Assembly (NCBI RefSeq): GCF_017163705.1
Contig: NZ_JAFIWB010000008.1
Location: 62,001-126,000, forward strand
Reading direction: 5' to 3'
Origin: Xanthomonas bonasiae
Lineage (GTDB): Bacteria; Pseudomonadota; Gammaproteobacteria; Xanthomonadales; Xanthomonadaceae
Length of the DNA: 64,000 bases
Shown piece after piece: positions 51,030 through 64,000 of this stretch. The notes below the pieces were generated by a model. That model was not told where the DNA came from and searched no databases. It saw only the letters and a program-made list of their open reading frames with translations. Positions within the stretch are counted from its first letter, which is position 1. Each line of letters starts with the position of its first letter. A program made the translations under genes and the position numbers.

Positions 51030-51124
51030 CCGCACAGGCGCCTGCCGCGCACACCCGCCCGGCCGCGCGCGGCCGCCGCGCCGGCGGTCTTATACTCGTG
51101 CGCTTTCTCCCAGGAATCCCTTCG

Positions 51125-52357
51125 ATGACCGCTTCCTCCGCCGCGGATCTGATCGCCCTCGGCCAGCACTACTACCTGCCGATCTACCGTCCGCGCCAGC
51201 TGGTGCTGGAGCGCGGCCAGGGCGCCAAGGTGTGGGACAGCGAAGGCCGCGACTACATCGACCTGTCCGCCGGCATCGCCGTGTGCGGGCTCGGCCACAA
51301 CGATCCGGACCTGACGGCGGCGCTGCTCGAGCAGGCCGGCAAGCTGTGGCACACCAGCAACGTGTTCTACAGCGAGCCGCCGCTGCGCCTGGCCGAGGAA
51401 CTGGTCGCCGCGTCGCGTTTCGCGCAGCGGGTGTTCCTGTGCAACTCCGGCAGCGAGGCCAACGAGGCGGCGATCAAGCTGGTGCGCAAGTGGGCTGCCA
51501 GCCAGGGCCGCGCGCCGGACCGGCGGGTCATCGTCACCTTCCGCGGCAGCTTCCACGGCCGCACCCTGGCCGCGGTCACCGCCACCGCGCAGCCGAAGTA
51601 CCAGGAAGGCTACGAGCCGCTGCCCGGCGGCTTCCGCTATGTAGATTTCAACGACATCGTGCAGTTGGAGACGGCGATGGCCGCCGGCGACGTGGCCGCG
51701 GTGATGATCGAGCCGGTGCAGGGCGAGGGCGGGGTGATGCCGGCCGCGCCGGGTTTCCTGGCGCAGGTGCGCGCGCTGTGCGACCACCATGGCGCGCTGC
51801 TGCTGCTGGACGAGATCCAGTGCGGCATGGGCCGCACCGGCACCTTGTTCGCGCACTGGCAGGACGAGGTGACGCCGGACATCGTGACCCTGGCCAAGGC
51901 GTTGGGCGGCGGTTTCCCGATCGGCGCGCTGCTGGCCGGGCCGAAGGTGGCCGAGACGATGCAGTTCGGCGCGCACGGCAGCACCTTCGGCGGCAATCCG
52001 CTGGCCGCGGCGGTGGCGCGGGTGGCGCTGCGCAAGCTGGCGTCGGCGCCGATCGCGGCGAACGTGTCGCGGCAGGCGGCGGCGCTGCGGCAGGGGTTGG
52101 CCGCGCTCAACGACGACTTCAAGCTGTTTGCGCAGGTGCGCGGGCGTGGCTTGATGCTCGGCGCGGTGCTGAACCAGGCGCATGAGGGGCAGGCCGGGGC
52201 GATTCTCGATCATGCCGCTGCGCATGGGTTGTTGACGTTGCAGGCCGGGCCGGATGTGTTGCGCTTCGTGCCTTCGTTGAATATCACCGATCAGGAAATG
52301 GCTGAGGGGTTGAAGCGGTTGCGGGCGGCGCTGCAGGCTTATGTCGGTAAGCGTTGA
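51125..52357 (+). CDS. argD: acetylornithine aminotransferase-like enzyme
   Basis: 410-residue PLP class III aminotransferase, probably for arginine synthesis. GSEANEAAIKLVRKW (near 108), FHGRTLAAVTAT (near 140), DEIQCGMGRTG (near 224) and the PLP-lysine LAKALGGGFPIGA (near 255) are all intact. Similarity to 4-aminobutyrate or succinylornithine transaminases cannot be excluded, but the start (YYLPIYRPRQLVLERGQGAK) and VAGLGH-like VCGLGHNDPD are ArgD-like. Downstream region holds repeats only. Confidence 0.88.
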   Translation: MTASSAADLIALGQHYYLPIYRPRQLVLERGQGAKVWDSEGRDYIDLSAGIAVCGLGHNDPDLTAALLEQAGKLWHTSNVFYSEPPLRLAEELVAASRFAQRVFLCNSGSEANEAAIKLVRKWAASQGRAPDRRVIVTFRGSFHGRTLAAVTATAQPKYQEGYEPLPGGFRYVDFNDIVQLETAMAAGDVAAVMIEPVQGEGGVMPAAPGFLAQVRALCDHHGALLLLDEIQCGMGRTGTLFAHWQDEVTPDIVTLAKALGGGFPIGALLAGPKVAETMQFGAHGSTFGGNPLAAAVARVALRKLASAPIAANVSRQAAALRQGLAALNDDFKLFAQVRGRGLMLGAVLNQAHEGQAGAILDHAAAHGLLTLQAGPDVLRFVPSLNITDQEMAEGLKRLRAALQAYVGKR

Positions 52358-52394
52358 GCCTGATTGACGTTTGAGTGTCTGTTGGCTTTTGATT

Positions 52395-52424
52395 CAACGG
52401 CAACGGCAACGGCAACGGCAACGG
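52395..52424. repeat. five tandem copies of CAACGG
   Basis: Five perfect copies of the hexamer CAACGG, 38 bases after the argD stop, immediately left of the structured element. Confidence 0.9.
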
Positions 52425-52456
52425 TACAAGCAAAGCTTTCGCGCTTTGCGCGAGTC

Positions 52457-52640
52457 ACTTTTCTTTGCTTGTGCAAAGAAAAGTAACCAAAAGAAAGCAC
52501 ACCCTGACTTCGCGCCCTCCGCGCTGCGCGCTCCGGGTCCGCGAATAGGCCGGGATTCACGGAAGGGGCATCCTGCCCCTGCCGTGAACGGCGCACATCC
52601 ATGTGCGCCGCCCCTTCGGGGTTTTTCCCGTCCTATTCGC
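52457..52640. repeat. structured intergenic element with nested inverted repeats
   Basis: A perfect 12-base hairpin, ACTTTTCTTTGC/GCAAAGAAAAGT (52457-52468 and 52473-52484), is followed by a closed structure: GCGAATAGG (52541-52549) pairs with CCTATTCGC (52632-52640) and encloses three hairpins: TTCACGG/CCGTGAA with GGGGCA/TGCCCC inside (52556-52588), GGCGCACAT/ATGTGCGCC (52590-52609) and CCCC-TTC-GGGG (52611-52621) followed by TTTTT. The last is terminator-like. As a folded unit it could be a dispersed non-coding element; similar text is common between genes in xanthomonads (from memory, not searched). Confidence 0.65.
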
Positions 52641-52668
52641 CGCTACGTAAGGGAACCCGGTAAAGCAA

Positions 52669-52752
52669 AGCCACAGCAACAGCAGCATCAACAGCCACAG
52701 CTACAGCTACAGCCACAGCCACAGCCACAGCTACAGCTACAGCTACAGCAGG
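52669..52752. repeat. imperfect hexamer tandem repeat (CMACAG)n
   Basis: About 13 hexamers of the type CCACAG/CTACAG/CAACAG run from about 52669 to 52752, just to the right of the structured element. A second, different hexamer array lies on its left. Such arrays change copy number easily. Confidence 0.85.
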
Positions 52753-52815
52753 AATGGCCGCGGGCGTTATGGCAGCTGCGGCGGACGCGGGCTCTGTCGG
52801 CGATAGGAGCGTCGT

Positions 52816-53463
52816 CTAGCCCAAGCCGTGCCGCGCAAGGGCGCGGCGCAGGGCGCGGGCGCCGCTGGCGGTTTCGGCGGGCATGCCGATCGCGCGGGCG
52901 CCGCGGACGTTGACGAACAGGTCGTCGATGAACAGGGCGTGCCGCGGGGCGATGCCGAAATGGTCGAGCGCGCGCCGGTAGACCTCGGCCTGCGGTTTGC
53001 GTCCGCCGAGTGCGCCGCTGCACAGGACGCGTCCCTGCAGCAGGGGGAACAGCGCCGGGACGATCTGCGGGATCGCCTGCGCCATCAGCGGGCCGTTGTT
53101 GGTCAGCACGCCGAGCGCGACCTTGCCGGCCAGCGCCAGCACGCGTTCGATCACGCCGGGATCGCCACGGCTGCCGGCCACGCGTGCGGCGATCCAGGCG
53201 GCCTCGTCCACCTGCGTGCCAAGGCCTTCGCCTAGCCGTTGCAGGTAGGCGGCGGTGGCGATGGCGCCGCCGTCGTAGGCGGTTTCCAGTCCGGAGGCGA
53301 ACAGGACCTCCCGCACCCGCGCCGGATCGCAGCCGCAATGGGTGGCCAGGTGCGCGATGCGTGCCGCCCGCGAGTAGGCCGCCAGCACGCCGTCGAAGTC
53401 GAGCAGCAGCAATTTCGGGCTTGGATGGATCAACGCGGCCACCGCGTCTGGCGCTGCACGCAA
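52816..53463 (-). CDS. HAD-family hydrolase
   Basis: 215 residues. The nucleophile motif is LLLDFDGVLAAYS (DxD as DFDGV, near 20), motif II is LTNNGP (near 123), and motif III/IV is GRKPQAEVYRRAL (K) and LFIDDLFVNVRGA (DD). It is therefore a complete phosphohydrolase-type HAD protein with a C1 cap; the substrate is unknown. The first codon is uncertain: TTG at 53463 or GTG at 53442. Divergent from the TonB-dependent receptor gene. Confidence 0.82.
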   Translation of the reverse strand: MRAAPDAVAALIHPSPKLLLLDFDGVLAAYSRAARIAHLATHCGCDPARVREVLFASGLETAYDGGAIATAAYLQRLGEGLGTQVDEAAWIAARVAGSRGDPGVIERVLALAGKVALGVLTNNGPLMAQAIPQIVPALFPLLQGRVLCSGALGGRKPQAEVYRRALDHFGIAPRHALFIDDLFVNVRGARAIGMPAETASGARALRRALARHGLG

Positions 53464-53722
53464 CGGCGCGGCTGGAACATGGGTCGGGTCCGAAGTGTCG
53501 TTGGCCGAGATTAACCCACTCCCCCGCGGCGATGAACGCCACTACCCGCGGCTCGGCGCTCGCCACCCCCCACCCACCCGCTCGCGGCGCACCTACCCGT
53601 CGGATCCGGTCGTCCGGTGCCGTGTGCTGGCTATGGTCCCTGCACGCCGCGATCGCGGCGCCGCCGGTCGGGGAACCGGTGCGCATCCACGCCACATCCA
53701 CGTCACCTCGGGGGTCTTGAAC

Positions 53723-56419
53723 ATGAGCAAGCGTCTGAACGCCGATCGTCTGGCGGAATCGGTATGCAGGGGACTGTGCAATGCACGGCACGGTCACGGG
53801 CTGGCCACGCTGACGCTGCTGCTGGCCGGCGCACAGGCGCTGCCGGCGCTGGCCGAAGAGCCGGGTGGCGAGGCCAAGACGCTGGATGCGATCACGGTCA
53901 TTTCGACCGGCACGCGCAAGGCCAACATGGCGGTCACCGACAGCCCGGCGCCGATCCAACTGGTGAGTGCGGAGATGCTCAAGCAGTCGGCCGCGCCGGA
54001 CCTGATCAATGCCATCGCCAACCAGGTGCCGTCGTACAACGCCAACCAGACCGGCAACGACATGGCGAGCCAGACGCTCACCGCCAGCCTGCGCAATCTC
54101 TCGCCCAACCACACCCTGGTGCTGGTCAACGGCAAGCGCCGCCACATCACCTCCAACGTCAACACCACCACCGGCGCGGCCTCGGCCGATCTGTCGTTCA
54201 TCCCGGCCGCGGCGATCGATCACGTCGAAGTGCTGACCGACGGCGCCGCCGCGCTGTACGGTTCGGACGCGATCGCCGGGGTCATCAACATCATCCTCAA
54301 GAAGAACCACGACGGCGGCGAAGTGGACGCCGGTTACGCGGGCTACAAGGATGGCGGTGGCGGCACCGATTCGTGGGGCGCCAACATCGGCTTCGGCAGC
54401 GACGCGGCGTATTTCAGCCTCAGCGCCGAGGTCGAGAACCGCAAGACGGTGTACCGTCTCGGTTCGTACAGCTATGCCGACTGCGTGGCCAACTATGCCG
54501 ACTGCACGGCGGTGAATCCGAGCATGGCCGACTTCCTGGCCGACGACGTCGAGGGCATGACCCTCAACGGGCGCTTCCCCAACGTCAACGCCTGGCTCAA
54601 TCCGCCGGAAGTGCACCGCAAGGCGCTGTTCTTCAACTCCGGGGTGGTGCTGAGCGACACGCTGGAGTTCTACGCGTTCGGCAGCTACGGCAAGAAGACC
54701 GCGCAGTCGGAGGAGAACTACCGCCGTCCCAGCCAGGACGGCGGCTACGTCTATCCGGTGACCGGCGCGGTCAGCCACAAGTATCCGCTGGGCTTCAATC
54801 CGTCCGAGGCCTCCGACGAGGTCGACTACGAGTTGACCGCCGGGCTGAAGGGCGTGCTGGCCGATTGGTCGTGGGATTTCTCCAGCAGCTACGGCAAGAA
54901 CGAGATGGACGTGTACACGCTGAACTCGATGAACTTCAGCCTGTGGCAGGACTACGGCTATTCGCCCGAGGACTTCTACGACGGCAGTTTCTGGGCCAGC
55001 CAGTGGACCACCAACTTCAACGCCACGCACGATTTCGACGTCGGCCTGTCGCAGCCGCTGACCTTCAACGCCGGCGTCGAATACCGCCGCGACCAGTACG
55101 GCATCGATCCGGGCGATCCGACCTCGTACTACGGCGCCGGCGCGTCCTCGTTCCCCGGCTACAACCCGCTGTTCAACACCGGCTCCTACAGCCGCCACAG
55201 CTACGCAGCCTACGCCGACGTGGTGTTCAATCCGACCGAGAAGTGGCTGGTGGATGTGGCCGGGCGTTACGAGGACTACAGCGACTTCGGCAGCAAGGTG
55301 GTCGGCAAGCTGACCACGCGCTTCGACTTCACCGACACCTTCGCGGTACGCGGCACCGCCAGCACCGGGTTCCGCGCGCCGACCCTGCAGGAAGGCTATT
55401 ACTCGGCGGTGCAGGTCGGCCCGACCAGCGCCACCCCGACCCTGCAGCCCAACAGCGCGGCTGCGGCGGCACTGGGCTTCGGCAGCCTGAAACCGGAGAC
55501 CAGCACCAACTACAGCCTGGGCTTCGTGTTCCGGCCGATGCCCAACTTCGACAGCACGCTCGATCTCTACCGCATCACTATTTCCGACCGCATCGGCGTG
55601 GGCACCTTCGAATATTCCAAGGCCGGCCAGCCGGGCGACACGAACGGCGACGGCACGCCCGACGCCGCCTACAACGCCGCGCTGGGCCAGGCGCTGGTCG
55701 ATTTCGGCTATCTCGGCGGCATCGATCCGGCCGCGCCGGGCGGCTCGCTCGACGCCACCGCGCGGCAGAACATCTCGGTGGCGATCTTCAACAATGCGCT
55801 GAAGACGCGCAGCACCGGCGTGGACTGGGTGACCAACTACATCACCGAGTTCGACTGGGGCTCGATCGACTGGATGCTGGCGGCCAACTACAACAAGACC
55901 GAAGTGCTCAGCGCCAAGCCGGCGCCGGAGGTGCTCGGCGGCGCCACCATGTACAGCGCGGCGACACTGATCAACCTGGAGAACAACGCGCCCAAGTACC
56001 GGTTCAACCTGGGCGCCACCTTCAACATCGGCAAGTTCAGCCTGCGCGTGACCGAGGCGGTCTATGGCCCGCAGTACCAGCTGATCGCGCCGTACGACGA
56101 GTGGAACGGCGACATCTTCCCCGACAGCGTGCTGAGCCAGCTCGACGTGGTCGACGTCAACGGCGCGCCGTACTACAAGCAGAAGATCGGCACGATGGCG
56201 CTGACCAACGTCGAACTGACGTTCCGGCCCACCGAACAGCTGACCGTCAGCGTCGGCGGCGACAACGTATTCAACAAATACCCCGACAAGGTGCCGGCGG
56301 CGGCGTACGACTACCTCGAGAAGAACTACCTCAGCTACTACAACTCGCCGTACCTGACCGGCAGCCCGGTCGGCTACTTCGGCGCGCGCTACTACGCCAA
56401 GCTGACCTACCGCTTCTGA
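53723..56419 (+). CDS. TonB-dependent outer-membrane receptor next to the exported oxidase operon
   Basis: 898 residues. A long signal peptide (ATLTLLLAGAQALPALAEE) precedes DAITVISTGTRKANMAVT (TonB-box-like), the plug (VEVLTDGAAALYGSDAIAGV, near 175) and a barrel ending KLTYRF. No STN signalling domain, so it is a transporter rather than a transducer. The barrel lies 200 bases before the amine-oxidase gene on the same strand, so it may import that enzyme's substrate (inference). ATG 53723 chosen as the first codon of a plausible signal peptide. Confidence 0.92.
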   Translation: MSKRLNADRLAESVCRGLCNARHGHGLATLTLLLAGAQALPALAEEPGGEAKTLDAITVISTGTRKANMAVTDSPAPIQLVSAEMLKQSAAPDLINAIANQVPSYNANQTGNDMASQTLTASLRNLSPNHTLVLVNGKRRHITSNVNTTTGAASADLSFIPAAAIDHVEVLTDGAAALYGSDAIAGVINIILKKNHDGGEVDAGYAGYKDGGGGTDSWGANIGFGSDAAYFSLSAEVENRKTVYRLGSYSYADCVANYADCTAVNPSMADFLADDVEGMTLNGRFPNVNAWLNPPEVHRKALFFNSGVVLSDTLEFYAFGSYGKKTAQSEENYRRPSQDGGYVYPVTGAVSHKYPLGFNPSEASDEVDYELTAGLKGVLADWSWDFSSSYGKNEMDVYTLNSMNFSLWQDYGYSPEDFYDGSFWASQWTTNFNATHDFDVGLSQPLTFNAGVEYRRDQYGIDPGDPTSYYGAGASSFPGYNPLFNTGSYSRHSYAAYADVVFNPTEKWLVDVAGRYEDYSDFGSKVVGKLTTRFDFTDTFAVRGTASTGFRAPTLQEGYYSAVQVGPTSATPTLQPNSAAAAALGFGSLKPETSTNYSLGFVFRPMPNFDSTLDLYRITISDRIGVGTFEYSKAGQPGDTNGDGTPDAAYNAALGQALVDFGYLGGIDPAAPGGSLDATARQNISVAIFNNALKTRSTGVDWVTNYITEFDWGSIDWMLAANYNKTEVLSAKPAPEVLGGATMYSAATLINLENNAPKYRFNLGATFNIGKFSLRVTEAVYGPQYQLIAPYDEWNGDIFPDSVLSQLDVVDVNGAPYYKQKIGTMALTNVELTFRPTEQLTVSVGGDNVFNKYPDKVPAAAYDYLEKNYLSYYNSPYLTGSPVGYFGARYYAKLTYRF

Positions 56420-56440
56420 GCTGCGCGCGCCCCGCTTGAG

Positions 56441-56462
56441 CCCCTCTCCCCCGGGAGAGGGG
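56441..56462. repeat. perfect hairpin CCCCTCTCCC/GGGAGAGGGG
   Basis: Ten-base arms, CCCCTCTCCC (56441-56450) and GGGAGAGGGG (56453-56462), with a two-base loop, followed by TTGGGGTGAGGG. No U-run, so not a standard terminator. It lies between the TonB receptor and amine-oxidase genes and may mark partial transcript processing. The rest of 56420-56619 holds no gene. Confidence 0.75.
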
Positions 56463-56619
56463 TTGGGGTGAGGGTCCGTCCGCCAGCGGCGCATCCGCTC
56501 GCGCCGCGCGCCGCCGGCCGCACTCCTACCCGCTCCATCGCGACCTACCCGCCGCACACGGCCTGCGCCGCCGCCGCGGCGGCTATGGTCGATCCGCAAT
56601 CCGTGAGGCGATATCGACG

Positions 56620-58218
56620 ATGCAAGCACCAACCAGGGGCGCCATGACCCGCCGCCAATTGCTCGCCAGGATCGGCCTGGCCGGCGGCGGCGCGATGATG
56701 TACCAGGCGATGCACAGCCTGGGCCTGGCCGCCGAATCGCGCTTCGGCGGCGTGCCGCGGCTGGACGGCGACGCCAAGGGCGCGTCGGTGCTGGTGCTCG
56801 GCGCCGGCCTGGCCGGGCTGACCGCGGCCTATGAGCTGCGCAAGGCCGGCTATCGCGTGCAGGTGCTCGAGTACAACGCGCGTCCGGGCGGCCGCAACTG
56901 GACGCTGCGCGGCGGCGATCGCTACACCGAGCTGGGCGGCTTCGAGCAGCAGTGCGGCTTCGACGAGGGCATGTACCTCAATCCCGGCCCGTGGCGCATC
57001 CCGCACCATCACAAGGCGGTGCTGTCCTACTGCAAGCAGTTCGGGGTGGCGCTGGAACCGTTCGTGCAGGTCAACTTCAACGCGCTGCTGCACAGCCGCG
57101 AGGGGTTCGGCGGCAAGCCGCAGCGTTTCCGCGACATCGACGCCGACTACAAGGGGCACGTGGCCGAACTGCTGGCCAAGAGCACCCGGCAGGGCGCGCT
57201 GGATGCGCAGGTGCAGCGCGAGGACCAGGAGATCCTGCTCGAGTCGCTGCGCAACTGGGGCGCGCTGGACAAGGATTTCGGCTACGTCAAAGGCCGCGAG
57301 AGCAGCGAGCGCCGCGGCTTCGCCAAATATCCCGGCGGCGGCCTGTCCGGCAAGCCGCAGTTCTCCGAACCGTTCACCACCCAGGACATCCTGCGCTCGC
57401 GGCTGTGGACCACGCTGGCGGCCGGCAACAACTACGAAATGCAGACCGCGATGTTCCAGCCGGTCGGCGGCATGGACCAGATCGGCAAGGCGTTCGCGCG
57501 CGAGCTAGGCGACGCGATCCGCTACAACGCACGGGTCACCCGCATCGATCAGGACGCGCACGGGGTCAGCGTCGCCTACCAGGACGGCGCCGGCGCCGAG
57601 CAACTGGCCAAGGCCGATTGGTGTGTGTGCACGATCCCGCTGTCGATCCTCAGCCGCATTCCGCTCGCGGTGGGCGAGAAGATGGCCGCCGCGATCGGGC
57701 AGGTGCCATACGCGGCCTCGGTGAAGGTCGGGCTGCAGTTCAAGCGCCGCTTCTGGGAAGAGGACGAGGCGATCTACGGCGGCATCAGCTACACCGACCT
57801 GCCGATCACCCTGATCAGCTATCCGAGCACCGGTTTCCAGAGCGCCGGCAAGGGCGTGCTGCTCGGCGCCTACGTGTGGGGACTGGAGGCGTTCGAGTTC
57901 ACCTCGATGACGCCGCAGCAGCGCGTGGCCAAGGCGGTGGAATACGGCACCCAGCTGCATCCGCAGTACCCGCGCGAATTCGACAACGGCATCGCCGTGG
58001 GCTGGCACCGGGTGCCGTTCACCCATGGCTGCTTCGGCGTGTGGAGCGATGCCGCACGCGCCGAGCACTACGAGAACCTGTGCCGGATCGACGGTCGCAT
58101 CGCGCTCGCCGGCGAGCACGCCTCGTACATTCCGGCCTGGCAGGAAGGGGCCATCACCTCGGCACTCGACGCGATCGAGCGCCTGCATCGCCGCGTCGTC
58201 AACGGAGCCCGCGCATGA
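56620..58218 (+). CDS. exported flavin amine oxidase (amino-acid/amine oxidase family)
   Basis: 532 residues. An N-terminal TRRQLLARIGLAGGGAMM looks like a Tat signal (twin Arg then hydrophobic stretch), so the FAD enzyme would be exported folded. The FAD site is VLVLGAGLAGLTAAYELRKA with the second motif ARPGGRNW, and the C-terminal FAD motif is RIALAGEHASYIPAWQEGAI. These fit the monoamine/L-amino-acid oxidase family, which turns amines into imines. Its stop overlaps the cytochrome c start (ATGA), so the cytochrome rather than O2 may be the electron acceptor. First codon could also be ATG 56644 (MTRRQ). Confidence 0.88.
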   Translation: MQAPTRGAMTRRQLLARIGLAGGGAMMYQAMHSLGLAAESRFGGVPRLDGDAKGASVLVLGAGLAGLTAAYELRKAGYRVQVLEYNARPGGRNWTLRGGDRYTELGGFEQQCGFDEGMYLNPGPWRIPHHHKAVLSYCKQFGVALEPFVQVNFNALLHSREGFGGKPQRFRDIDADYKGHVAELLAKSTRQGALDAQVQREDQEILLESLRNWGALDKDFGYVKGRESSERRGFAKYPGGGLSGKPQFSEPFTTQDILRSRLWTTLAAGNNYEMQTAMFQPVGGMDQIGKAFARELGDAIRYNARVTRIDQDAHGVSVAYQDGAGAEQLAKADWCVCTIPLSILSRIPLAVGEKMAAAIGQVPYAASVKVGLQFKRRFWEEDEAIYGGISYTDLPITLISYPSTGFQSAGKGVLLGAYVWGLEAFEFTSMTPQQRVAKAVEYGTQLHPQYPREFDNGIAVGWHRVPFTHGCFGVWSDAARAEHYENLCRIDGRIALAGEHASYIPAWQEGAITSALDAIERLHRRVVNGARA

Positions 58219-58643
58219 AGCTGGATCGTCACTGGATGCTCGCCGCGGCGGTCGCCGCCGGGGTGCTGGCGCTGATGCTGCCGCCGGCGATCGGCCCGGC
58301 CGCGGCGCAGAGCTCCGATGCCACGCCGCTGTATCCGCAGGCCGCGTTCGCCACCGCTTCCGGCGCCACCGTGTACGCGGCGATCTGCCAGAGCTGCCAC
58401 ATGCCCGGCGGGCAGGGCGCGCGCGGCGGCGGCGAGTATCCGGCGCTGGCCGGCAACCCCAAGGTGGCCGCGGCGCCGTACGTGGCGATGATGGTGCTCG
58501 ACGGCCGCGGCGGCATGCCCGGTTTCGCCGGCATGCTCAACGATCAGCAGGTCGCCGAGGTCGTGCATTACGTGCGCAGCCAGTTCGGCAACGACTATCC
58601 CGGCAAGCTCAGCGCCGACGAGGTGCGCACGCTGCGGCACTGA
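58215..58643 (+). CDS. secreted c-type cytochrome
   Basis: 142 residues with a cleavable signal peptide (~30 residues ending AAAQ). Haem is attached at CQSCH (near 60), and the Met ligand is in GGMPGFAG (near 100). Small soluble cytochrome c with one haem. Its start overlaps the amine-oxidase stop, and it should accept electrons from that enzyme in the periplasm and pass them to a terminal oxidase or azurin (inference). Confidence 0.9.
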   Translation: MKLDRHWMLAAAVAAGVLALMLPPAIGPAAAQSSDATPLYPQAAFATASGATVYAAICQSCHMPGGQGARGGGEYPALAGNPKVAAAPYVAMMVLDGRGGMPGFAGMLNDQQVAEVVHYVRSQFGNDYPGKLSADEVRTLRH

Positions 58644-58687
58644 GCCGGTTCCGTTTCATTCTCTTTTCCGATCGCGAGGAGTTCCGC

Positions 58688-59197
58688 ATGCGCCGTTCGT
58701 TCGTTTCCCGCTCGCTCCGTGCCGGTCTGTGCGCTGCGCTGTGGCTGCCCGCCCTGGCCGGCGCCGCCGAAATCGTGCGCCACAAGATTCCCAACAGCGA
58801 TTTCCCGATTTCCGCGGCGGTGGAGATCCCGGCGGGCAAGACCACGGTCTATCTCAGCGGCGCGGTGCCGCGGCCGATCGATGCGAGCGCGCCGAAGGAT
58901 TCGCCCGCCGCCTACGGCGACACCAAGGCGCAGACCATCAGCGTGCTGTCGCAGATCGAAGCGCAGCTGCACGGCATGGGCCTGGGCATGCGCGACGTGG
59001 TCAAGATGCAGGCGTTCCTGGTCGGCGATCCGGCGCTGGGCGGGAAGATGGATTTCGCCGGGTTCATGGAGGGTTACCGGCAGTTCTTCGGCACGCCCGA
59101 ACAGCCCAACCTGCCGTCGCGCTCGGCGTTCCAGATCGCCGCGCTGGGCAATCCGCTGTACCGCATCGAGATCGAAGTGGTCGCCGTGCGTCCGTAG
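58688..59197 (+). CDS. secreted RidA-family (YjgF/UK114) protein
   Basis: 169 residues with a signal peptide (SRSLRAGLCAALWLPALAGA). The RidA fold follows: VYLSGAVPRPIDAS, ETQ/KAQTISVLSQIEAQLHGM, DVVKMQAFLVGD and the C-terminal PSRSAFQIAALGNPLYRIEI with conserved Arg (SRSA) that binds the substrate carboxylate. RidA proteins hydrolyse reactive imines/enamines, usually in the cytoplasm; an exported copy downstream of an imine-producing oxidase gives a clear reason for its place. AGGAGTTCCGC precedes the ATG. Confidence 0.85.
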   Translation: MRRSFVSRSLRAGLCAALWLPALAGAAEIVRHKIPNSDFPISAAVEIPAGKTTVYLSGAVPRPIDASAPKDSPAAYGDTKAQTISVLSQIEAQLHGMGLGMRDVVKMQAFLVGDPALGGKMDFAGFMEGYRQFFGTPEQPNLPSRSAFQIAALGNPLYRIEIEVVAVRP

Positions 59198-59228
59198 GTT
59201 CTTCGCCCTGTCTTCCAAGGAGTCCGCC

Positions 59229-60419
59229 ATGCAGCAGCCGTCGCGTTCGCGCCGCACTTTCCTCAAGGACTCGGCGCTGGTCGCCGCGGCCGGCTTCGGC
59301 GCGCCGTGGCTGGCGCAGGCCGCGCCCGCCGCGGCGCAGGCGACCAATGCCGACCTGGCGCCGGTGCTGATCAACGCCAACGAATATCCCGGCGGACCGT
59401 CGCCGGCCGCGCAGCGCGCGATCGCCGCGATCGCGTCCAGCGGCGGCCGTTACCTGGGCGAGCTGCAACTGGAATTGCTGCAGACCCTCGCCGACCAGCT
59501 CGGCGTGGGCATCGATCACCTGATGGCCTACGCCGGTTCCACCGAGCCGCTGGACTACACCATGCTGGCGTTCACCTCGCCCAGCGCGTCGCTGGTCACC
59601 GCCGATCCGACCTTCGAATCCGGCTGGCGCGCCGCTGCGCGCAACGGCGCCAAGGTGATCAAGGTGCCGCTGCGCAAGGACGACGCGCACGACGTGCAGG
59701 CGATGTGCGCCGCCGACGCCAACGCCGGGGTGATCTACATCTGCAACCCGAACAATCCCACCGGTTCGGTGACGTCGCGCAAGGACCTGGACTATGCGCT
59801 GGCGCACAAGCCCAAGGGCAGCGTGCTGGTGGTCGACGAGGCGTATCTGCATTTCTCCGACAGCGCCCGCAGCATGGTCGACCGCGTCGCCGCCGGCGAC
59901 GACGTGATCGTGTTGCGCACCTTCTCCAAGCTCTACGGCATGGCCGGCATCCGCCTGGGCTATGCGGTGGCGCGGCCGGAGCTGCTGGCCAAGCTGAAGT
60001 TCTACAGCGTCAACAGCCTGCCGGTGACCGCGGTCGCCGCCGGCCTGGTCAGCCTGCGCGATCCGGCGCTGGTGCCGCAGCGGCGCACGCTCAACAGCGC
60101 CATCCGCAGCGACGTGGTGCGCTGGCTCGGGGCGCAGGGCTATGCGTGCACGGCGTCGGAAAGCAATTGCTTCATGGTCGACGTGAAGCGCCCGGCGAAG
60201 GAGTTCATGGACGCGATGGCCACCTATGGCGTGTTCGTCGGCCGCAGCTGGGCGTTGTGGCCGAACCGGTCGCGCATCACCGTCGGCACCGCGCCGGAGA
60301 TGGCGCGATTCAAGAGCGCGTTCGCGCAGGTGGCGGCCGGCAAGCGCGGGCCGCTGCCGGTGCCGGCGCCGAGGATGGCGCTGCATGATCCGCTGCACGG
60401 ATTCTTCCGCAACGCCTAG
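59229..60419 (+). CDS. Tat-exported PLP aminotransferase (HisC-like fold)
   Basis: 396 residues. The N-terminus SRRTFLKDSALVAAAGFGAP with AQAAPAAAQA after it is a convincing twin-arginine signal, so this PLP enzyme should work in the periplasm. Class I/II landmarks: NANEYPGGPSPAAQRAI, PNNPTGSV, DEAYLHFSD, PLP lysine in TFSKLYGMAGIRLGY, and NRSRITVGT with the carboxylate-binding Arg. Substrate unknown; resemblance to histidinol-phosphate aminotransferase is fold-level. It may use the same amino compound as the oxidase or recycle the product. AAGGAG precedes the ATG. Confidence 0.87.
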   Translation: MQQPSRSRRTFLKDSALVAAAGFGAPWLAQAAPAAAQATNADLAPVLINANEYPGGPSPAAQRAIAAIASSGGRYLGELQLELLQTLADQLGVGIDHLMAYAGSTEPLDYTMLAFTSPSASLVTADPTFESGWRAAARNGAKVIKVPLRKDDAHDVQAMCAADANAGVIYICNPNNPTGSVTSRKDLDYALAHKPKGSVLVVDEAYLHFSDSARSMVDRVAAGDDVIVLRTFSKLYGMAGIRLGYAVARPELLAKLKFYSVNSLPVTAVAAGLVSLRDPALVPQRRTLNSAIRSDVVRWLGAQGYACTASESNCFMVDVKRPAKEFMDAMATYGVFVGRSWALWPNRSRITVGTAPEMARFKSAFAQVAAGKRGPLPVPAPRMALHDPLHGFFRNA

Positions 60420-60569
60420 GCATTGCCTGCGCCGGATGCTGCAGTGCACGAGGACTTGTCGTTGACAAACATTTGCGCAAAGGCAGACAGTCGTGGCGAC
60501 GCCGCTGCGCGCGCAGCGCATGCTGGCGAGGTTCGCGTTGCTGTGCCGTCCCCATTGAAGGAGTCCGTC

Positions 60570-61025
60570 TTGAAAGCGAAGTCGCTGTCCCCCTTGCTGG
60601 TCCTCGCCGCGCTCGCGTTCGCGCCGGCGGCCTGGGCCAAGACCTGCGCGGTGACCATCACCGGCACCGACCAGATGTCCTTCGACCAACCCCAGATCAA
60701 GGTCGCCGCCGACTGCACCGAAGTGGCGCTGACGCTCAAGCACAGCGGCAAGCTCGCTGCCGCGGTGATGGGCCACAACTGGGTGCTGACCAAGACCCCG
60801 GACTTCCAGGCGGTGGCCAATGCCGGCACCAGCTCCAGCCTGGCCGACAACTACCTGCCGAAGAACGACGCGCGGATCATCGCGCACACCAAGGTGATCG
60901 GCGCCGGGCAGTCGGACACGGTCAAGTTCTCCACCGCCAAGTTGAGCAAGGGCGGCGACTACACGTTCTTCTGCTCGTTCCCGGGGCACTGGGCGATGAT
61001 GAAGGGCAAGTTCGTGTTCGGCTGA
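60570..61025 (+). CDS. azu: azurin (periplasmic blue copper protein)
   Basis: 151 residues with a signal peptide ending AAWAK. The copper ligands are complete: GHNW (His46 type), then CSFPGHWAMM giving Cys112, His117 and Met121 equivalents. Azurin carries electrons between periplasmic redox enzymes and terminal oxidases. I chose TTG 60570 because AAGGAG ends six bases before it and it opens the signal peptide; no ATG is suitable. It is 150 bases after the aminotransferase, close enough to be part of the same functional set, but it may have its own promoter. Confidence 0.93.
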   Translation: MKAKSLSPLLVLAALAFAPAAWAKTCAVTITGTDQMSFDQPQIKVAADCTEVALTLKHSGKLAAAVMGHNWVLTKTPDFQAVANAGTSSSLADNYLPKNDARIIAHTKVIGAGQSDTVKFSTAKLSKGGDYTFFCSFPGHWAMMKGKFVFG

Positions 61026-61127
61026 GTCGCCGCGGTTGCGGTTGCGCTGCAGGTTGCGATCGGCGATCTGCAGCGCATTTCGAACAGGATGGTGCCGCAG
61101 GCGTCGGCCTGCGTCAGTGCCGACTCA

Positions 61128-61201
61128 CCTGTAGGAGCGGCTTCAGCCGCGACCGGGCTTTCCCGGTAGGGCCCGGTCGCGGCTGAAGCCGCTCCTACAG
61201 G
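61128..61201. repeat. perfect REP-type hairpin after azurin
   Basis: Perfect 31-base arms (61128-61158 and 61171-61201), core GTAGGAGCGGCTTCAGCCGC, with a 12-base loop, between the convergent azurin and MalT-like genes. Same repeat type as at 25361-25429 and the 37-kb array. May stabilise mRNA 3' ends. Confidence 0.88.
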
Positions 61202-61234
61202 GTCGCGACGATTCTCGCGATTGCGAGATCGCAC

Positions 61235-63946
61235 TCAGTCCAATGCGGAATCCGGCGGCGCCATGCGCTGCAGCAGGCCGCGTTGCAGCGCGCTGGCCAG
61301 CGCCGCTTCGCGGGTGCCGGCTTCCAGCTTGCGGTACAGGTTCTTCAGGTGGAACTTGACCGTGTTCTCCGACAGCGCCAGGCGTCGCGCGATCTGCTTG
61401 TTCGCATCGCCCTGCGCCAGCAGCGCCAGCACTTCCAGTTCGCGTTCGCTGAACAGGTCGGCGCCGCTGTCCTGGTCGTGGCGCAGCTTGTCGAGCAGCG
61501 CCTGGATGGTCATCGCCAGCGTGGTGTTCGGTGCGGCCTGCGGATCCTGCTGGCGCGCCATGCGCAGCAGCGCCTTGCCCGGCACGCCCAGTTCCAGCAG
61601 GCATTGCCAGGCCTGGGTGCTGGCCACGTGCTGCAGCGCGTGACGCAGATAGGGCAGGGCGGCGGCGGATTCGCCGCGGTCGTGCAGCACCAGCGCGATG
61701 CGCGCGCGCACCCGCGCCAGCTGCACCTGGTTGTCGGCGGCCACGCAGGCCGCTTCGACGCCTTGCAGCACCGCCAGCGCAGCGCGGGTGCGTCCGCCCA
61801 GCCGATGCCAGCGGGCCAGGGCGAAGCCGAGCGCGGCGAGGAAGCGCCAATCCTGCGGCTGGCCCAGCGCGTGCGCGAACCGCGCCTCGCCGCCGGTGCG
61901 CGCGACCAGCACGTCGATCGCCGGCGAGGGCGGCTGGTCGAGCAGCACGTGCAGCCGCCAGGCCAGCGCCAGGTCGGCGAGCCGGCCGAGGTGCCGCGCA
62001 TGCGCGATGCGGTCGATATGGTCGAGCAGAGCCAGCGCGGCGCGGCCGCTGCGGTCGTGCTGCCGCGCCAGCACCAGCGCGGTCTCGTAGCCGGCGGCAT
62101 AGATGTCCAGCCAGCCGTCGTGCTGTTCCAGGAACCCCAGCGCCGGCTGCAGGCAGTCGGCGGCTTCGTCGTAGCGGCCGTGCTCGCATTGCAGCTGCGC
62201 CAGCAGGCACTGGCCAACCGCCTGCAGGGTGGGATCGAGCTGTTGCTGGCGCTGGGCGATGGCCAGCGCCTGGCGGCAGATGGCTTCGGCCCGCTCCAGT
62301 TGGCCGCGGTAGTAGTGGCTCTGCGCCAGATGGATCAGCGCATAGCTGGTGCCGACTTCGCTGCCGCTGGCCTGCATCGCGGTACCGGCCAGCTGCGCAT
62401 AGCGCTCGGCGCCGGCGAAATCGGCGCGGCCCAGTGCGGTGGTGGCGCAGATACACCATAGCGTGCCGCGGCCCAGGCTGTCGTCCTCGTCCAGCGCCGC
62501 CGCCTGCGCGGCGATCTGCGCCAGTCCGCGCGGGTTGGCGCAGACCTGGTCGAGCAGGTCGCGCAGCAGCGCCACCACCACCGTGTAGTCGCGTTCGAAC
62601 GGGGCGCGCACCTGTTCGGGGAAATCGCGGAAGCGTTCCAGCAGGGTCTGCGCGTGCGCGAACTCGCCCAGCTTCATGTGCAGGTAGGCCTGGGTCAGGT
62701 TCAGCGCCGGCCGCTCGCCGATGCTGCTGCGCGGGAAGCGGCGCAGCAGCGCGCGGATCGGGGCGGTGCCGTGGCGCAGCAGCAACTGCCAGGTGCCGGC
62801 GCGGGCGATGCAGTCGGCGGCGCTGTCGATCGCGCCGCCGCGCACCGCATGCCGCACCGCTTCGGGCAACTGTCCGTGCGCGTCGAACCAGTGCGCGGCG
62901 CGCCGGTGCAGCTGCGGGGCCAGTCCGGGCGTGTCGCGTTCCAGCTGCTGGGACAGATAATCGGCGAACAGCGGATGGAAGCGGAACCATTCCTGCTCGC
63001 CGTCCAGCGCCACCAGCAGGCCCTGGAAGTGCGCCAGCCGCTCCAGCAGGCGGCCGCTGTCGTCGCGTTCGCGCACCGCGTCGGCGAGCGCGGCGTTGAA
63101 CCGTTCCAGCGGCGACAGCTGCAGCAGCAACGCGCGCAAGGCCGGATCCAGGTCGTTGAGCACCTGCTCGGCCAGATACGCCGCCAGCGCGGCGGTGCGT
63201 CCGGAGAACCGGCCCAGATCGTCGCGGCGGCGTTCGTCGCCGCCCAGCCATAGCCCGGCCAGTTGCAGCGCGACCGCCCAGCCCTCGGTCTGGCGGCGCA
63301 ACTGGCGGGCCATCGCCGCCGGCACCTGCGGTCCCAGCAGGGCCAGCGTCTCGGCGTCGTCCAGCGCGAGTTCGCGTGCGCCGATGCGTTCCAGCTGGCC
63401 CTGTAGCGCCCAGCGCGCCAATGGCAGCGCCGGCGCGCGCCGGGTGGCCAGCAACAGGTGCAATTGGCCGCCGGCATGTTCGACCAGCCGCGTCACCACC
63501 TCGTCGAGCGCGCTGGCGTGGCCGCGATCGTAGTCGTCGAGGATCACCAGCAGGCGCCGCGGCGCGGCACGGATCGCGCGGATCAGCACCGGCAGGGTGG
63601 ACGCCACCTCCAGGTCCTGGCCCCGCTGCTGCAGCACCGCCTGCAAGGGCGCGCCGAGTTCGATCCCGGCGCCACGCGCGGCCAGCGCCAGGTAGGCGAG
63701 GAAGCGCCCCGGATCGGCGTCGTCCTCGTCCAGCGACAGCCACGCCACCGCGGCCTCGCCGCGCTCGCGCAGGCGCTGGTGCCATTGCCCGAGCAAGGTG
63801 GTCTTGCCGAAGCCGGGCGGCGCCAGCAACAGCGTCAGCGGCAGCTCGGCGGCGCGGTCCAGATGCTGCAGCAACGCCTCGCGCGCCACCGCGGCCACGC
63901 GCGAGCGCGGCGGCGCCAGTTTGTCGGCCAGCACCCAGTCGGGCAT
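61235..63946 (-). CDS. MalT/LAL-type LuxR-family transcriptional regulator
   Basis: 903 residues. Walker A is APPGFGKTT (near 42), followed by a Walker B-like LLVILDDYD (near 131); a large helical middle part (TPR-like) then leads to the C-terminal LuxR helix-turn-helix (LFSERELEVLALLAQGDANK, QIARRLALSENTVKFHLKNL). This is the MalT-like STAND ATPase class that activates transcription on binding an inducer. I chose ATG 63946 (MPDWVLADKLAPP); a TTG at 63988 would extend it by 14 residues. Convergent with azurin; control of the oxidase/azurin region is possible but unproven. Confidence 0.88.
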   Translation of the reverse strand: MPDWVLADKLAPPRSRVAAVAREALLQHLDRAAELPLTLLLAPPGFGKTTLLGQWHQRLRERGEAAVAWLSLDEDDADPGRFLAYLALAARGAGIELGAPLQAVLQQRGQDLEVASTLPVLIRAIRAAPRRLLVILDDYDRGHASALDEVVTRLVEHAGGQLHLLLATRRAPALPLARWALQGQLERIGARELALDDAETLALLGPQVPAAMARQLRRQTEGWAVALQLAGLWLGGDERRRDDLGRFSGRTAALAAYLAEQVLNDLDPALRALLLQLSPLERFNAALADAVRERDDSGRLLERLAHFQGLLVALDGEQEWFRFHPLFADYLSQQLERDTPGLAPQLHRRAAHWFDAHGQLPEAVRHAVRGGAIDSAADCIARAGTWQLLLRHGTAPIRALLRRFPRSSIGERPALNLTQAYLHMKLGEFAHAQTLLERFRDFPEQVRAPFERDYTVVVALLRDLLDQVCANPRGLAQIAAQAAALDEDDSLGRGTLWCICATTALGRADFAGAERYAQLAGTAMQASGSEVGTSYALIHLAQSHYYRGQLERAEAICRQALAIAQRQQQLDPTLQAVGQCLLAQLQCEHGRYDEAADCLQPALGFLEQHDGWLDIYAAGYETALVLARQHDRSGRAALALLDHIDRIAHARHLGRLADLALAWRLHVLLDQPPSPAIDVLVARTGGEARFAHALGQPQDWRFLAALGFALARWHRLGGRTRAALAVLQGVEAACVAADNQVQLARVRARIALVLHDRGESAAALPYLRHALQHVASTQAWQCLLELGVPGKALLRMARQQDPQAAPNTTLAMTIQALLDKLRHDQDSGADLFSERELEVLALLAQGDANKQIARRLALSENTVKFHLKNLYRKLEAGTREAALASALQRGLLQRMAPPDSALD

Positions 63947-64000
63947 GGCGGGACTGTCGTGCGCGGCCGGAGGGAAACGCGGATTCAACAGCGTGACAGG

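What the first reader, a model, noticed from the sequence alone, without database searches (positions are those of the whole stretch)
56620..61025. Operon for exported oxidation of an amine or amino acid, with its own imine-handling enzyme
Seen: a Tat-like signal-bearing FAD amine oxidase overlaps (ATGA) a secreted cytochrome c, then a signal-bearing RidA, a Tat-signal PLP aminotransferase and azurin, all on one strand and all exported, with a TonB-dependent receptor just upstream. Known: flavin amine oxidases make imines, RidA hydrolyses imines/enamines, cytochrome c and azurin carry electrons. Inferred: a periplasmic pathway takes up an amino compound through the outer membrane, oxidises it using cytochrome c/azurin instead of O2, detoxifies the imine outside the cytoplasm and moves amino groups with a PLP enzyme. 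I know no named pathway with this set.
Basis: partly seen in the sequence, partly recalled or inferred. Interest (0 to 1): 0.8.

Follow-up and report, generated by a model that had tools for sequence, protein, structure and literature searches.

The report
Exported amino-acid oxidation gene cassette
This is a xanthomonad gene cassette that probably strips amino groups and electrons from L-amino acids outside the cytoplasm and passes the electrons to a cytochrome; its three-gene core is already published from an auxin-making bacterium, and here it comes with a receptor, an exported transaminase and a regulator of its own.

Summary
The genes are real and placed as described. The flavoenzyme is LAAO-type rather than a generic amine oxidase (closest solved sequence: Rhodococcus opacus L-amino acid oxidase, E 7e-95). 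A heme-c gene follows it in 79 of 80 named relatives, and after 76 of 77 called oxidase genes against 6 of 897 other genes. A Rid3-type imine deaminase gene follows in 54 of 80. This trio matches the published lao-cccA-ridA cluster of Gluconacetobacter diazotrophicus, whose lao insertion mutants accumulate tryptophan and make no auxin.

Azurin is not a member: it stays in the backbone HAD-azurin-hemL in five relatives without the oxidase, and in one compared at DNA level a 7.0-kb block before it and a 3.2-kb block after it are missing. The overlooked member is the convergent MalT/LuxR-type regulator: 24 of 247 family genomes, 22 with the oxidase, the other two with remnants. A near-full transaminase orthologue is in 19, all with the oxidase.

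Most likely: a periplasmic L-amino acid:cytochrome c dehydrogenase plus imine deaminase, extended in xanthomonads by receptor, exported transaminase and regulator. Electron acceptor and substrate are inferred, not shown.

The parts
53723..56419 (+). TonB-dependent receptor (cassette member; in most other Xanthomonas loci seen a second, divergent receptor type takes its place)
   Evidence: Pfam PF00593 113 bits and PF07715 69 bits; 91-97% identical receptor in 7 of 8 same-genus loci; a receptor of family F8 or F9 directly upstream of the oxidase in 18 of 80 named relatives, a lower bound because the gene caller misses genes in low-GC loci
56620..58218 (+). Tat-exported LAAO-type flavoprotein amine oxidoreductase (start 56620 or 56644)
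   Evidence: PF01593 207 bits; best PDB match 2JAE, R. opacus L-amino acid oxidase, E 7.2e-95; twin-arginine-like start in 80 of 80 named relatives; R126, Y401, W507 invariant in 20 aligned sequences
58215..58643 (+). secreted mono-heme class I cytochrome c, presumed electron acceptor
   Evidence: PF13442 52.5 bits, PF00034 40 bits; CQSCH motif; ATGA overlap with the oxidase
58688..59197 (+). Rid-family imine deaminase with Sec-type signal, nearest to the Rid3 proteins PSPTO3006 and PFL1385
   Evidence: PF01042 54.8 bits; PDB 9bka E 7e-36 and 9bkc E 2e-32, next 9e-7
59229..60419 (+). Tat-exported PLP-dependent transaminase, PtaA-like branch of the HisC family
   Evidence: NCBIfam NF006580 549 bits, cut-off 444; NF051461 PtaA 408 bits, cut-off 500, not met
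61235..63988 (-). MalT/LuxR-type regulator, convergent, inherited with the cassette
   Evidence: GerE/LuxR domain 66.8 bits, MalT model 296 bits below its cut-off 537; 24 of 247 genomes, 22 with the oxidase
60570..61025 (+). azurin: neighbour, NOT a cassette member
   Evidence: TIGR02695 184 bits; present in 153 of 247 genomes; stays between HAD and hemL where the cassette is absent
53412..60434 (.). block without counterpart in a same-genus genome that lacks the oxidase (7,023 bp against 134 bp there)
   Evidence: blastn against L197
61026..64000 (.). second block without counterpart in the same genome (runs to 64229, past the window end; 3,204 bp against 72 bp there)
   Evidence: blastn of L205 against L197

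Best explanation
A periplasmic amino-acid oxidation cassette. A TonB-dependent receptor may bring the substrate or its carrier across the outer membrane. A Tat-exported LAAO-type flavoenzyme takes two electrons from an L-amino acid and hands them one by one to the co-encoded secreted cytochrome c, acting as a dehydrogenase and not as an H2O2-forming oxidase. The secreted Rid3-type protein hydrolyses the released 2-imino acid to the 2-keto acid and ammonium. In xanthomonads a Tat-exported PtaA-like transaminase moves amino groups between amino and keto acids in the same compartment, and a MalT/LuxR-type regulator controls the set. Shown here: gene content, export-signal motifs, LAAO kinship, conserved linkage, joint presence and absence. 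Inferred: cytochrome as acceptor, amino-acid substrate, Rid role, transaminase role, receptor ligand, what the regulator controls.
For: LAAO kinship: 2JAE E 7e-95 against MAO-B E 7e-13, NicA2 entries not among the 60 best shown of 104 matches. Heme-c ORF next door in 79 of 80 relatives, against 6 of 897 control genes. Tree: 40-row clade (SH-aLRT 99) with 38 rows cytochrome-linked, roLAAO outside it. Rid directly downstream in 54 of 80. Regulator in 22 of 26 oxidase-bearing against 2 of 221 other genomes, near-full transaminase in 19 of 26 against 0 of 221. Empty site. Neighbours elsewhere handle peptides and amino acids: an M20 peptidase family in 12 loci (signal-like starts in several members), an S15 peptidase family in 9 loci, a peptide-type ABC transporter in 4. 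Published: G. diazotrophicus lao insertion mutants show a large peak of unmetabolised tryptophan and no IAA, and ccm mutants make 5% of normal IAA (PMC5053998, abstract and passages); clade 2 and 3 FAOs with an adjacent CytC react with it faster than with O2 (PMC12224317, section 14); Rid3 proteins deaminate imino acids (PMC5619798, passages).
Against: No enzyme of this clade has a measured acceptor in what I read. The Tn5 insertions lowered lao, cccA and ridA transcripts together, so single-gene roles were not parted, and low indole-3-pyruvate remained (PMC5053998). In PMC12224317 the clade 1 pairs reacted only modestly with their cytochromes and one clade 2 enzyme kept a sizeable O2 rate, so adjacency is not proof; the lysine held to promote O2 reactivity occurs in oxidases and dehydrogenases alike (section 18). 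L145 has no adjacent cytochrome; 24 of 80 loci show no Rid (seven loci are under 12 kb). The crude signal rule was met by only 63 of 95 called cytochrome and 19 of 27 called transaminase genes, partly through miscalled starts. The transaminase is absent or broken in several oxidase-bearing genomes (L158, L159, L163, L165, L166). Free amino acids should pass porins, so the receptor hints at a larger substrate. No fold was predicted.
Confidence: 0.7

Rival explanations
1. An O2-using exported L-amino acid oxidase that makes H2O2 (antimicrobial or nitrogen-scavenging); the cytochrome removes peroxide or is incidental.
For: The nearest solved enzyme, roLAAO, is named an oxidase. The periplasmic LAAO of Chlamydomonas also pairs with a RidA and makes H2O2 (PMC10805672, passages). 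Rodrigues et al. describe LAAO as H2O2-forming (PMC5053998, passages).
Against: Cytochrome linkage in 79 of 80 relatives against 6 of 897 control genes. Outside the clade six rows have a twin-arginine start but no heme ORF within 1.5 kb (L045, L047, L049, L052, L053, L067), so export alone does not bring one. In PMC12224317 FAOs with a Tat signal and an adjacent CytC were mostly cytochrome users, with exceptions.
Confidence: 0.15
2. The xanthomonad cassette tailors a larger peptide or siderophore-like molecule in the periplasm (receptor, PtaA-like transaminase and oxidase acting on one scaffold) rather than free amino acids.
For: PtaA acts on the glutamate of pyoverdine in the periplasm, and a wider role was suggested (PMC6206403, passages). 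A receptor sits upstream; the second receptor type matches the siderophore-receptor model at 121 bits, below its cut-off of 223.5.
Against: The same oxidase-cytochrome-Rid trio occurs in many genera without transaminase and often without a receptor. The oxidase keeps R126, Y401 and W507. I did not search for biosynthetic clusters outside the region, so this is weakly tested.
Confidence: 0.1
3. Chiefly an auxin route: L-tryptophan to indole-3-pyruvate outside the cytoplasm, then to indole-3-acetic acid.
For: G. diazotrophicus lao mutants make no IAA (PMC5053998). Its published primers, translated in frame, match all three window proteins at corresponding positions.
Against: No indolepyruvate/phenylpyruvate decarboxylase over the TIGR03394 cut-off in 3 of 3 genomes tried (one model only, other routes not tested). 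Neighbours elsewhere point to general peptide or amino-acid use.
Confidence: 0.15

Closest known systems
lao-cccA-ridA cluster of Gluconacetobacter diazotrophicus PAL5 (GDI2456-2454; PMC5053998)
   Same: Same three proteins, adjacent, numbered in that succession, Tat signal on the oxidase; six published primer ends translate to peptides colinear with the window proteins
   Different: No transaminase, receptor or MalT-type regulator is mentioned in the passages I read; its phenotype is auxin from tryptophan, not tested in xanthomonads. I did not have that genome
NicA2-CycN, Pnao and the cytochrome-using FAO dehydrogenases (PMC12224317 sections read; PMC9396064 seen in a listing only)
   Same: Tat-exported FAO with an adjacent class I cytochrome c gene
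   Different: Those come from a NicA2 BLAST set (three clades); the window enzyme is LAAO-type and NicA2 entries are not among its 60 best PDB chains. The terms Rid, L-amino acid oxidase, azurin, aminotransferase, Xanthomonas and TonB occur 0 times in that main text
Rhodococcus opacus L-amino acid oxidase (PDB 2JAE)
   Same: Closest solved sequence, aligned over window residues 49-528
   Different: Branches outside the cytochrome-linked clade; Y401 faces a phenylalanine in it as aligned; I did not examine its gene neighbourhood
Chlamydomonas LAO1-LAO2/RidA periplasmic system (PMC10805672, passages)
   Same: Extracytoplasmic LAAO with a Rid partner, giving ammonium and keto acid
   Different: H2O2-forming, eukaryotic; no cytochrome partner, transaminase or receptor in the passages read
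PtaA, periplasmic transaminase of Pseudomonas fluorescens (PMC6206403, passages)
   Same: Tat-exported PLP transaminase of the same HisC-like branch (408 bits)
   Different: Window enzyme is below the PtaA model cut-off (500); different genomic setting
Rid3 subfamily, PSPTO_3006 and PFL_1385 (PMC5619798, passages)
   Same: Closest solved Rid proteins by a wide margin; they deaminate imino acids including iminoarginine
   Different: Partner oxidase of those proteins not examined here

Membership tests
lao-cccA-ridA type cluster | LAAO-type Tat oxidase, cytochrome c and Rid, adjacent, in that order, one strand | tested here: met
   primer-derived peptides of all three G. diazotrophicus genes colinear
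lao-cccA-ridA type cluster | Needed for turning tryptophan into indole-3-pyruvate/IAA | not testable with these tools
   Needs mutants or purified protein
CytC-using FAO dehydrogenase (NicA2/Pnao kind) | Tat signal on the FAO and an adjacent cytochrome c gene | tested here: met
   Window; 80 of 80 relatives twin-arginine-like, 79 of 80 with downstream heme ORF
CytC-using FAO dehydrogenase (NicA2/Pnao kind) | Reduced flavin reoxidised much faster by its cytochrome than by O2 | not testable with these tools
   Stopped-flow kinetics needed
CytC-using FAO dehydrogenase (NicA2/Pnao kind) | Membership of the NicA2-derived clades 1-3 | tested here: inconclusive
   Closest to LAAOs, NicA2 not among the 60 best PDB chains; no NicA2 sequence was put in the tree
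L-amino acid oxidase family (roLAAO/snake type) | Best sequence kinship to LAAOs and retention of the arginine, tyrosine and tryptophan of the substrate site (roles recalled from snake LAAO) | tested here: met
   E 7e-95; R126, Y401, W507 invariant in 20 aligned sequences. R126 and W507 face the same residue in 2JAE and in 9rum; Y401 faces tyrosine in 9rum but phenylalanine in 2JAE as aligned
L-amino acid oxidase family (roLAAO/snake type) | Oxidises L-amino acids with O2 | not testable with these tools
   Assay needed
PtaA (NF051461) | Score at or above the curated cut-off of 500 bits | tested here: not met
   408.3 bits; so PtaA-like, not filed as PtaA
Rid3 subfamily | Closest to PSPTO_3006/PFL_1385 among solved Rid proteins | tested here: met
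   127 and 116 bits against 32.5 for the next; no Rid subfamily tree was built
MalT (PRK04841 model) | Score at or above the MalT model cut-off of 537 bits | tested here: not met
   296 bits, LuxR-type GerE domain present: MalT-like, not MalT

The most novel reading that the evidence does not exclude
A self-contained periplasmic transdeamination module: the Tat-exported transaminase collects amino groups from many L-amino acids onto one keto acid, the LAAO-type dehydrogenase re-oxidises the resulting amino acid and feeds its electrons straight into cytochrome c, and Rid releases ammonium and regenerates the keto acid. Amino acids would thus be deaminated and respired entirely outside the cytoplasm, under one dedicated regulator; the oxidase clade would be an LAAO-side origin of cytochrome-linked amine dehydrogenases apart from the NicA2 clades.
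Probability: 0.2. Interest if true: 0.75.

Novelty: new variant of a known kind. Interest (0 to 1): 0.5.

Why it matters
That extends the recent revision of the amine oxidase superfamily to its amino-acid branch and would explain why cytochrome c maturation mutants of G. diazotrophicus lose most of their auxin. The xanthomonad version adds an exported transaminase and a co-inherited regulator, which makes extracytoplasmic amino-acid metabolism in plant-associated bacteria directly testable.

Tried and rejected
Azurin as a pathway component: rejected. It is found in 153 of 247 family genomes and sits between HAD and hemL in five genomes without the oxidase (L197, L198, L201-L203; in L202 argD lies about 5 kb off and HAD is only 37% identical).

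IAA by an IpdC-type decarboxylase in the host: 0 of 3 genomes reach the TIGR03394 cut-off; the matches below the cut-off (126 bits at most) are not informative, because all 14 control genomes also match below it.

NicA2 as a tree row: not obtained. Two other amine oxidases were tried as bridges in PDB searches; the second lists NicA2 entries (5ttj and others, about 77 bits) but not among the five printed alignments. So separateness from the NicA2 clades rests and not on a joint tree.

A first heme-motif filter that demanded a methionine at a set distance missed 26 of 80 loci. I replaced it by a looser one and checked that against control genes; tblastn with the window cytochrome had independently given 79 of 80.

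Structure prediction of the oxidase: tried 14 times, always 'machine busy'; no fold evidence is used. RNA families: 0 matches in 50000-64000. Promoter and terminator scan: nothing beyond shuffles.

Fisher p-values (2.7e-25 regulator, 5.6e-23 transaminase) ignore relatedness and are given as description only.

Literature: searches listed 12 of 141 and 12 of 78 papers; some searches listed all of 4, 2 and 4. None of the listed papers is about the xanthomonad cassette by title and abstract start. A Stenotrophomonas paper (PMC7688217) that holds RidA, azurin and cytochrome c once or twice each was not opened.


Full report
What is there. On the plus strand lie a TonB-dependent receptor (53723-56419), a twin-arginine amine-oxidase-family flavoprotein (56620-58218), a mono-heme cytochrome c (58215-58643, sharing ATGA with the oxidase), a signal-bearing Rid protein (58688-59197), a twin-arginine PLP enzyme (59229-60419) and azurin (60570-61025). 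A MalT/LuxR-type regulator (61235-63988) faces them from the minus strand.

What the oxidase is. The best solved match is Rhodococcus opacus L-amino acid oxidase (2JAE, E 7.2e-95, residues 49-528), followed by ancestral tetrapod and other LAAOs; MAO-B reaches only 7e-13, and NicA2 entries are not among the 60 shown of 104 matches. In 20 aligned sequences (the window and 19 relatives, 52-80% identical to it) the arginine of the RIP motif (R126), Y401 and W507 are invariant. In one search R126 and W507 face the same residue in 2JAE and in the ancestral LAAO 9rum; Y401 faces tyrosine in 9rum but phenylalanine in 2JAE as aligned. That these are substrate-site residues is recalled from snake LAAO. 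A 55-row tree puts the window enzyme in a 40-row clade (SH-aLRT 99): 38 rows have a cytochrome gene directly downstream, one (L050) has heme ORFs placed otherwise, one (L145) has none. Outside it fall a second cytochrome-linked group (L043, L044, L051, L188), a pair with a di-heme ORF (L046, L048), six rows with a twin-arginine start but no heme ORF within 1.5 kb (L045, L047, L049, L052, L053, L067), and roLAAO itself (quick method, no bootstrap, roLAAO and L067 on long branches).

Is the linkage real? A heme-motif ORF follows on the same strand in 79 of 80. Of the called genes in these loci, 76 of 77 oxidase genes have one against 6 of 897 other genes. A Rid gene lies directly downstream in 54 of 80, elsewhere in the locus in 2, and was not found in 24 (seven loci are shorter than 12 kb). 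Twin-arginine-like starts were seen in 80 of 80 oxidases. A crude signal rule was met by 63 of 69 called Rid, 63 of 95 cytochrome, 19 of 27 transaminase and 17 of 28 azurin genes; some of the misses shown have miscalled starts, and at least one Rid pass (L070) is itself a miscalled start. The loci cover 28 named genera of Alpha-, Beta- and Gammaproteobacteria plus records without a genus.

What belongs and what does not. Among the 80 named loci the transaminase occurs in 11 (10 Xanthomonas, 1 Pseudoxanthomonas; in L076 in two pieces), the regulator in 10 (9 and 1) and azurin in 10 (Xanthomonas only); a receptor of the two families seen lies directly upstream in 18. All eight same-genus loci fetched carry oxidase, cytochrome, Rid, transaminase, azurin and regulator; seven carry the same receptor and one (L157) the other type; azurin in one (L152) is matched only in part. 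Across 247 genomes of the family, the oxidase is in 26 (E <= 1e-60) and the regulator in 24, of which 22 have the oxidase; the four oxidase-bearing genomes without it are G041, G042, G092 and G192, where G192 keeps a part (L165). A near-full transaminase orthologue (72-100% identity) is in 19, all with the oxidase; shorter matches remain in G192 (with oxidase) and G231 (without); a paralogue about half identical is found in many of the genomes. Azurin is in 153. In two same-genus genomes without the oxidase (L197, L198) and three others of the family (L201-L203), HAD, azurin and hemL follow one another with no match to a cassette gene or the regulator; argD is next to HAD in four of the five and about 5 kb off in L202. 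L197 has no counterpart for window 53412-60434 and 61026-64229, with azurin aligned between the two gaps. Two further genomes show decay: L199 keeps regulator, azurin and a transaminase matched in three pieces; L200 keeps Rid, azurin and regulator. So the co-inherited unit is receptor, oxidase, cytochrome, Rid, transaminase and regulator; azurin is the neighbour that it flanks. Azurin may still carry electrons, but the evidence gives it no special tie. The transaminase is dispensable: it is absent or broken in L158, L159, L163, L165 and L166, which keep oxidase, cytochrome and Rid.

Known relatives. G. diazotrophicus carries lao-cccA-ridA. Two Tn5 insertions in lao abolish IAA, with a large peak of unmetabolised tryptophan and low indole-3-pyruvate left; in the mutant tested all three transcripts fall, so the genes were not tested one by one. 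Cytochrome c maturation mutants, in earlier work cited there, make 5% of wild-type IAA (PMC5053998, abstract and passages). I did not have that genome, but the six qPCR primers printed there, read in frame, give YPSHGYF from 404 and QVIHPNY from 447 (lao), AIYQHV from 41 and NYVRSH from 108 (cccA), ASTIYL from 48 and KLGKID from 113 (ridA). These match window oxidase YPSTGF from 401 and QLHPQY from 445 (the shared tyrosine and histidine each three positions off), the cytochrome at about 53 and 117, and Rid at about 51 and 120. The paper already says, from OperonDB, that the organisation exists in Xanthomonas and Caulobacter. Cytochrome-using FAO dehydrogenases are established for NicA2-related enzymes (PMC12224317, abstract and sections 7, 13, 14, 18), though clade 1 pairs there reacted only modestly; the terms Rid, L-amino acid oxidase, azurin, aminotransferase, Xanthomonas and TonB do not occur in its main text. 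Rid3 proteins, the closest solved Rids, deaminate imino acids made by LAAO and by D-arginine dehydrogenase (PMC5619798, passages). A Tat-exported periplasmic transaminase, PtaA, is known and was thought to have wider roles (PMC6206403, passages); the window enzyme scores 408 bits against its cut-off of 500 and passes the broader NF006580. A periplasmic LAAO-RidA pair exists in Chlamydomonas (PMC10805672, passages). The paper searches listed none on the xanthomonad cassette; two of these listings were capped and the library is open-access only.

How it most likely works. The oxidase reduces its FAD with an L-amino acid in the periplasm and passes the electrons to the co-encoded cytochrome c; Rid turns the imino acid into keto acid and ammonium. 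In other lineages the neighbours fit amino-acid supply: an M20 peptidase family (12 loci, Bradyrhizobium and relatives) follows the trio or the oxidase-cytochrome pair, with signal-like starts in several members; an S15-type peptidase family lies two genes upstream in 9 loci (Dyella and relatives, with a GNAT gene between); a peptide-type ABC transporter with another M20 enzyme lies downstream in 4 (Mesorhizobium and relatives) (one member of each family was scanned). In xanthomonads the transaminase could widen the range of usable amino acids by passing their amino groups to the keto acid which the oxidase makes, a transdeamination cycle; this is inference. Acceptor, substrate and receptor ligand are untested.

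Verdict. What I add is the six-gene xanthomonad cassette with its co-inherited regulator and exported transaminase, the empty-site evidence, and the broad cytochrome linkage of an LAAO-type clade.

Noticed in passing
window 61128-61201: Perfect 31-bp inverted repeat with a 12-nt loop between azurin and the regulator; it looks like a dispersed extragenic palindrome.
   Followed up: no
window 56441-56462: Perfect 10-bp inverted repeat with a 2-nt loop in the 200-bp gap between receptor and oxidase, which may part the two transcripts.
   Followed up: no
G000:C22:291643-292740: A second transaminase of the same branch, 52% identical, elsewhere in the host genome; such a paralogue occurs in many genomes of the family.
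   Followed up: no
L046, L048: More distant LAAO-like enzymes with a twin-arginine start, followed by an ORF of about 207 codons with two heme motifs, reminiscent of the c4-type partners of clade 1 in PMC12224317.
   Followed up: partly
L043, L044, L051, L188: A second cytochrome-linked group of LAAO-like enzymes, about 42-45% identical to the window enzyme, outside its clade.
   Followed up: partly
L199 and L200: Decaying cassettes in two Xanthomonadaceae genomes: regulator and azurin kept, oxidase gone, transaminase in pieces or gone.
   Followed up: yes
L088: A contig titled Candidatus Eremiobacteraeota has the gene neighbourhood of Dyella; the genome bin is probably misassigned.
   Followed up: no
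window 52688-56632, minus strand: A 1314-aa ORF lies antisense to the receptor; the gene caller prefers the receptor, so it is taken as a high-GC shadow ORF.
   Followed up: no
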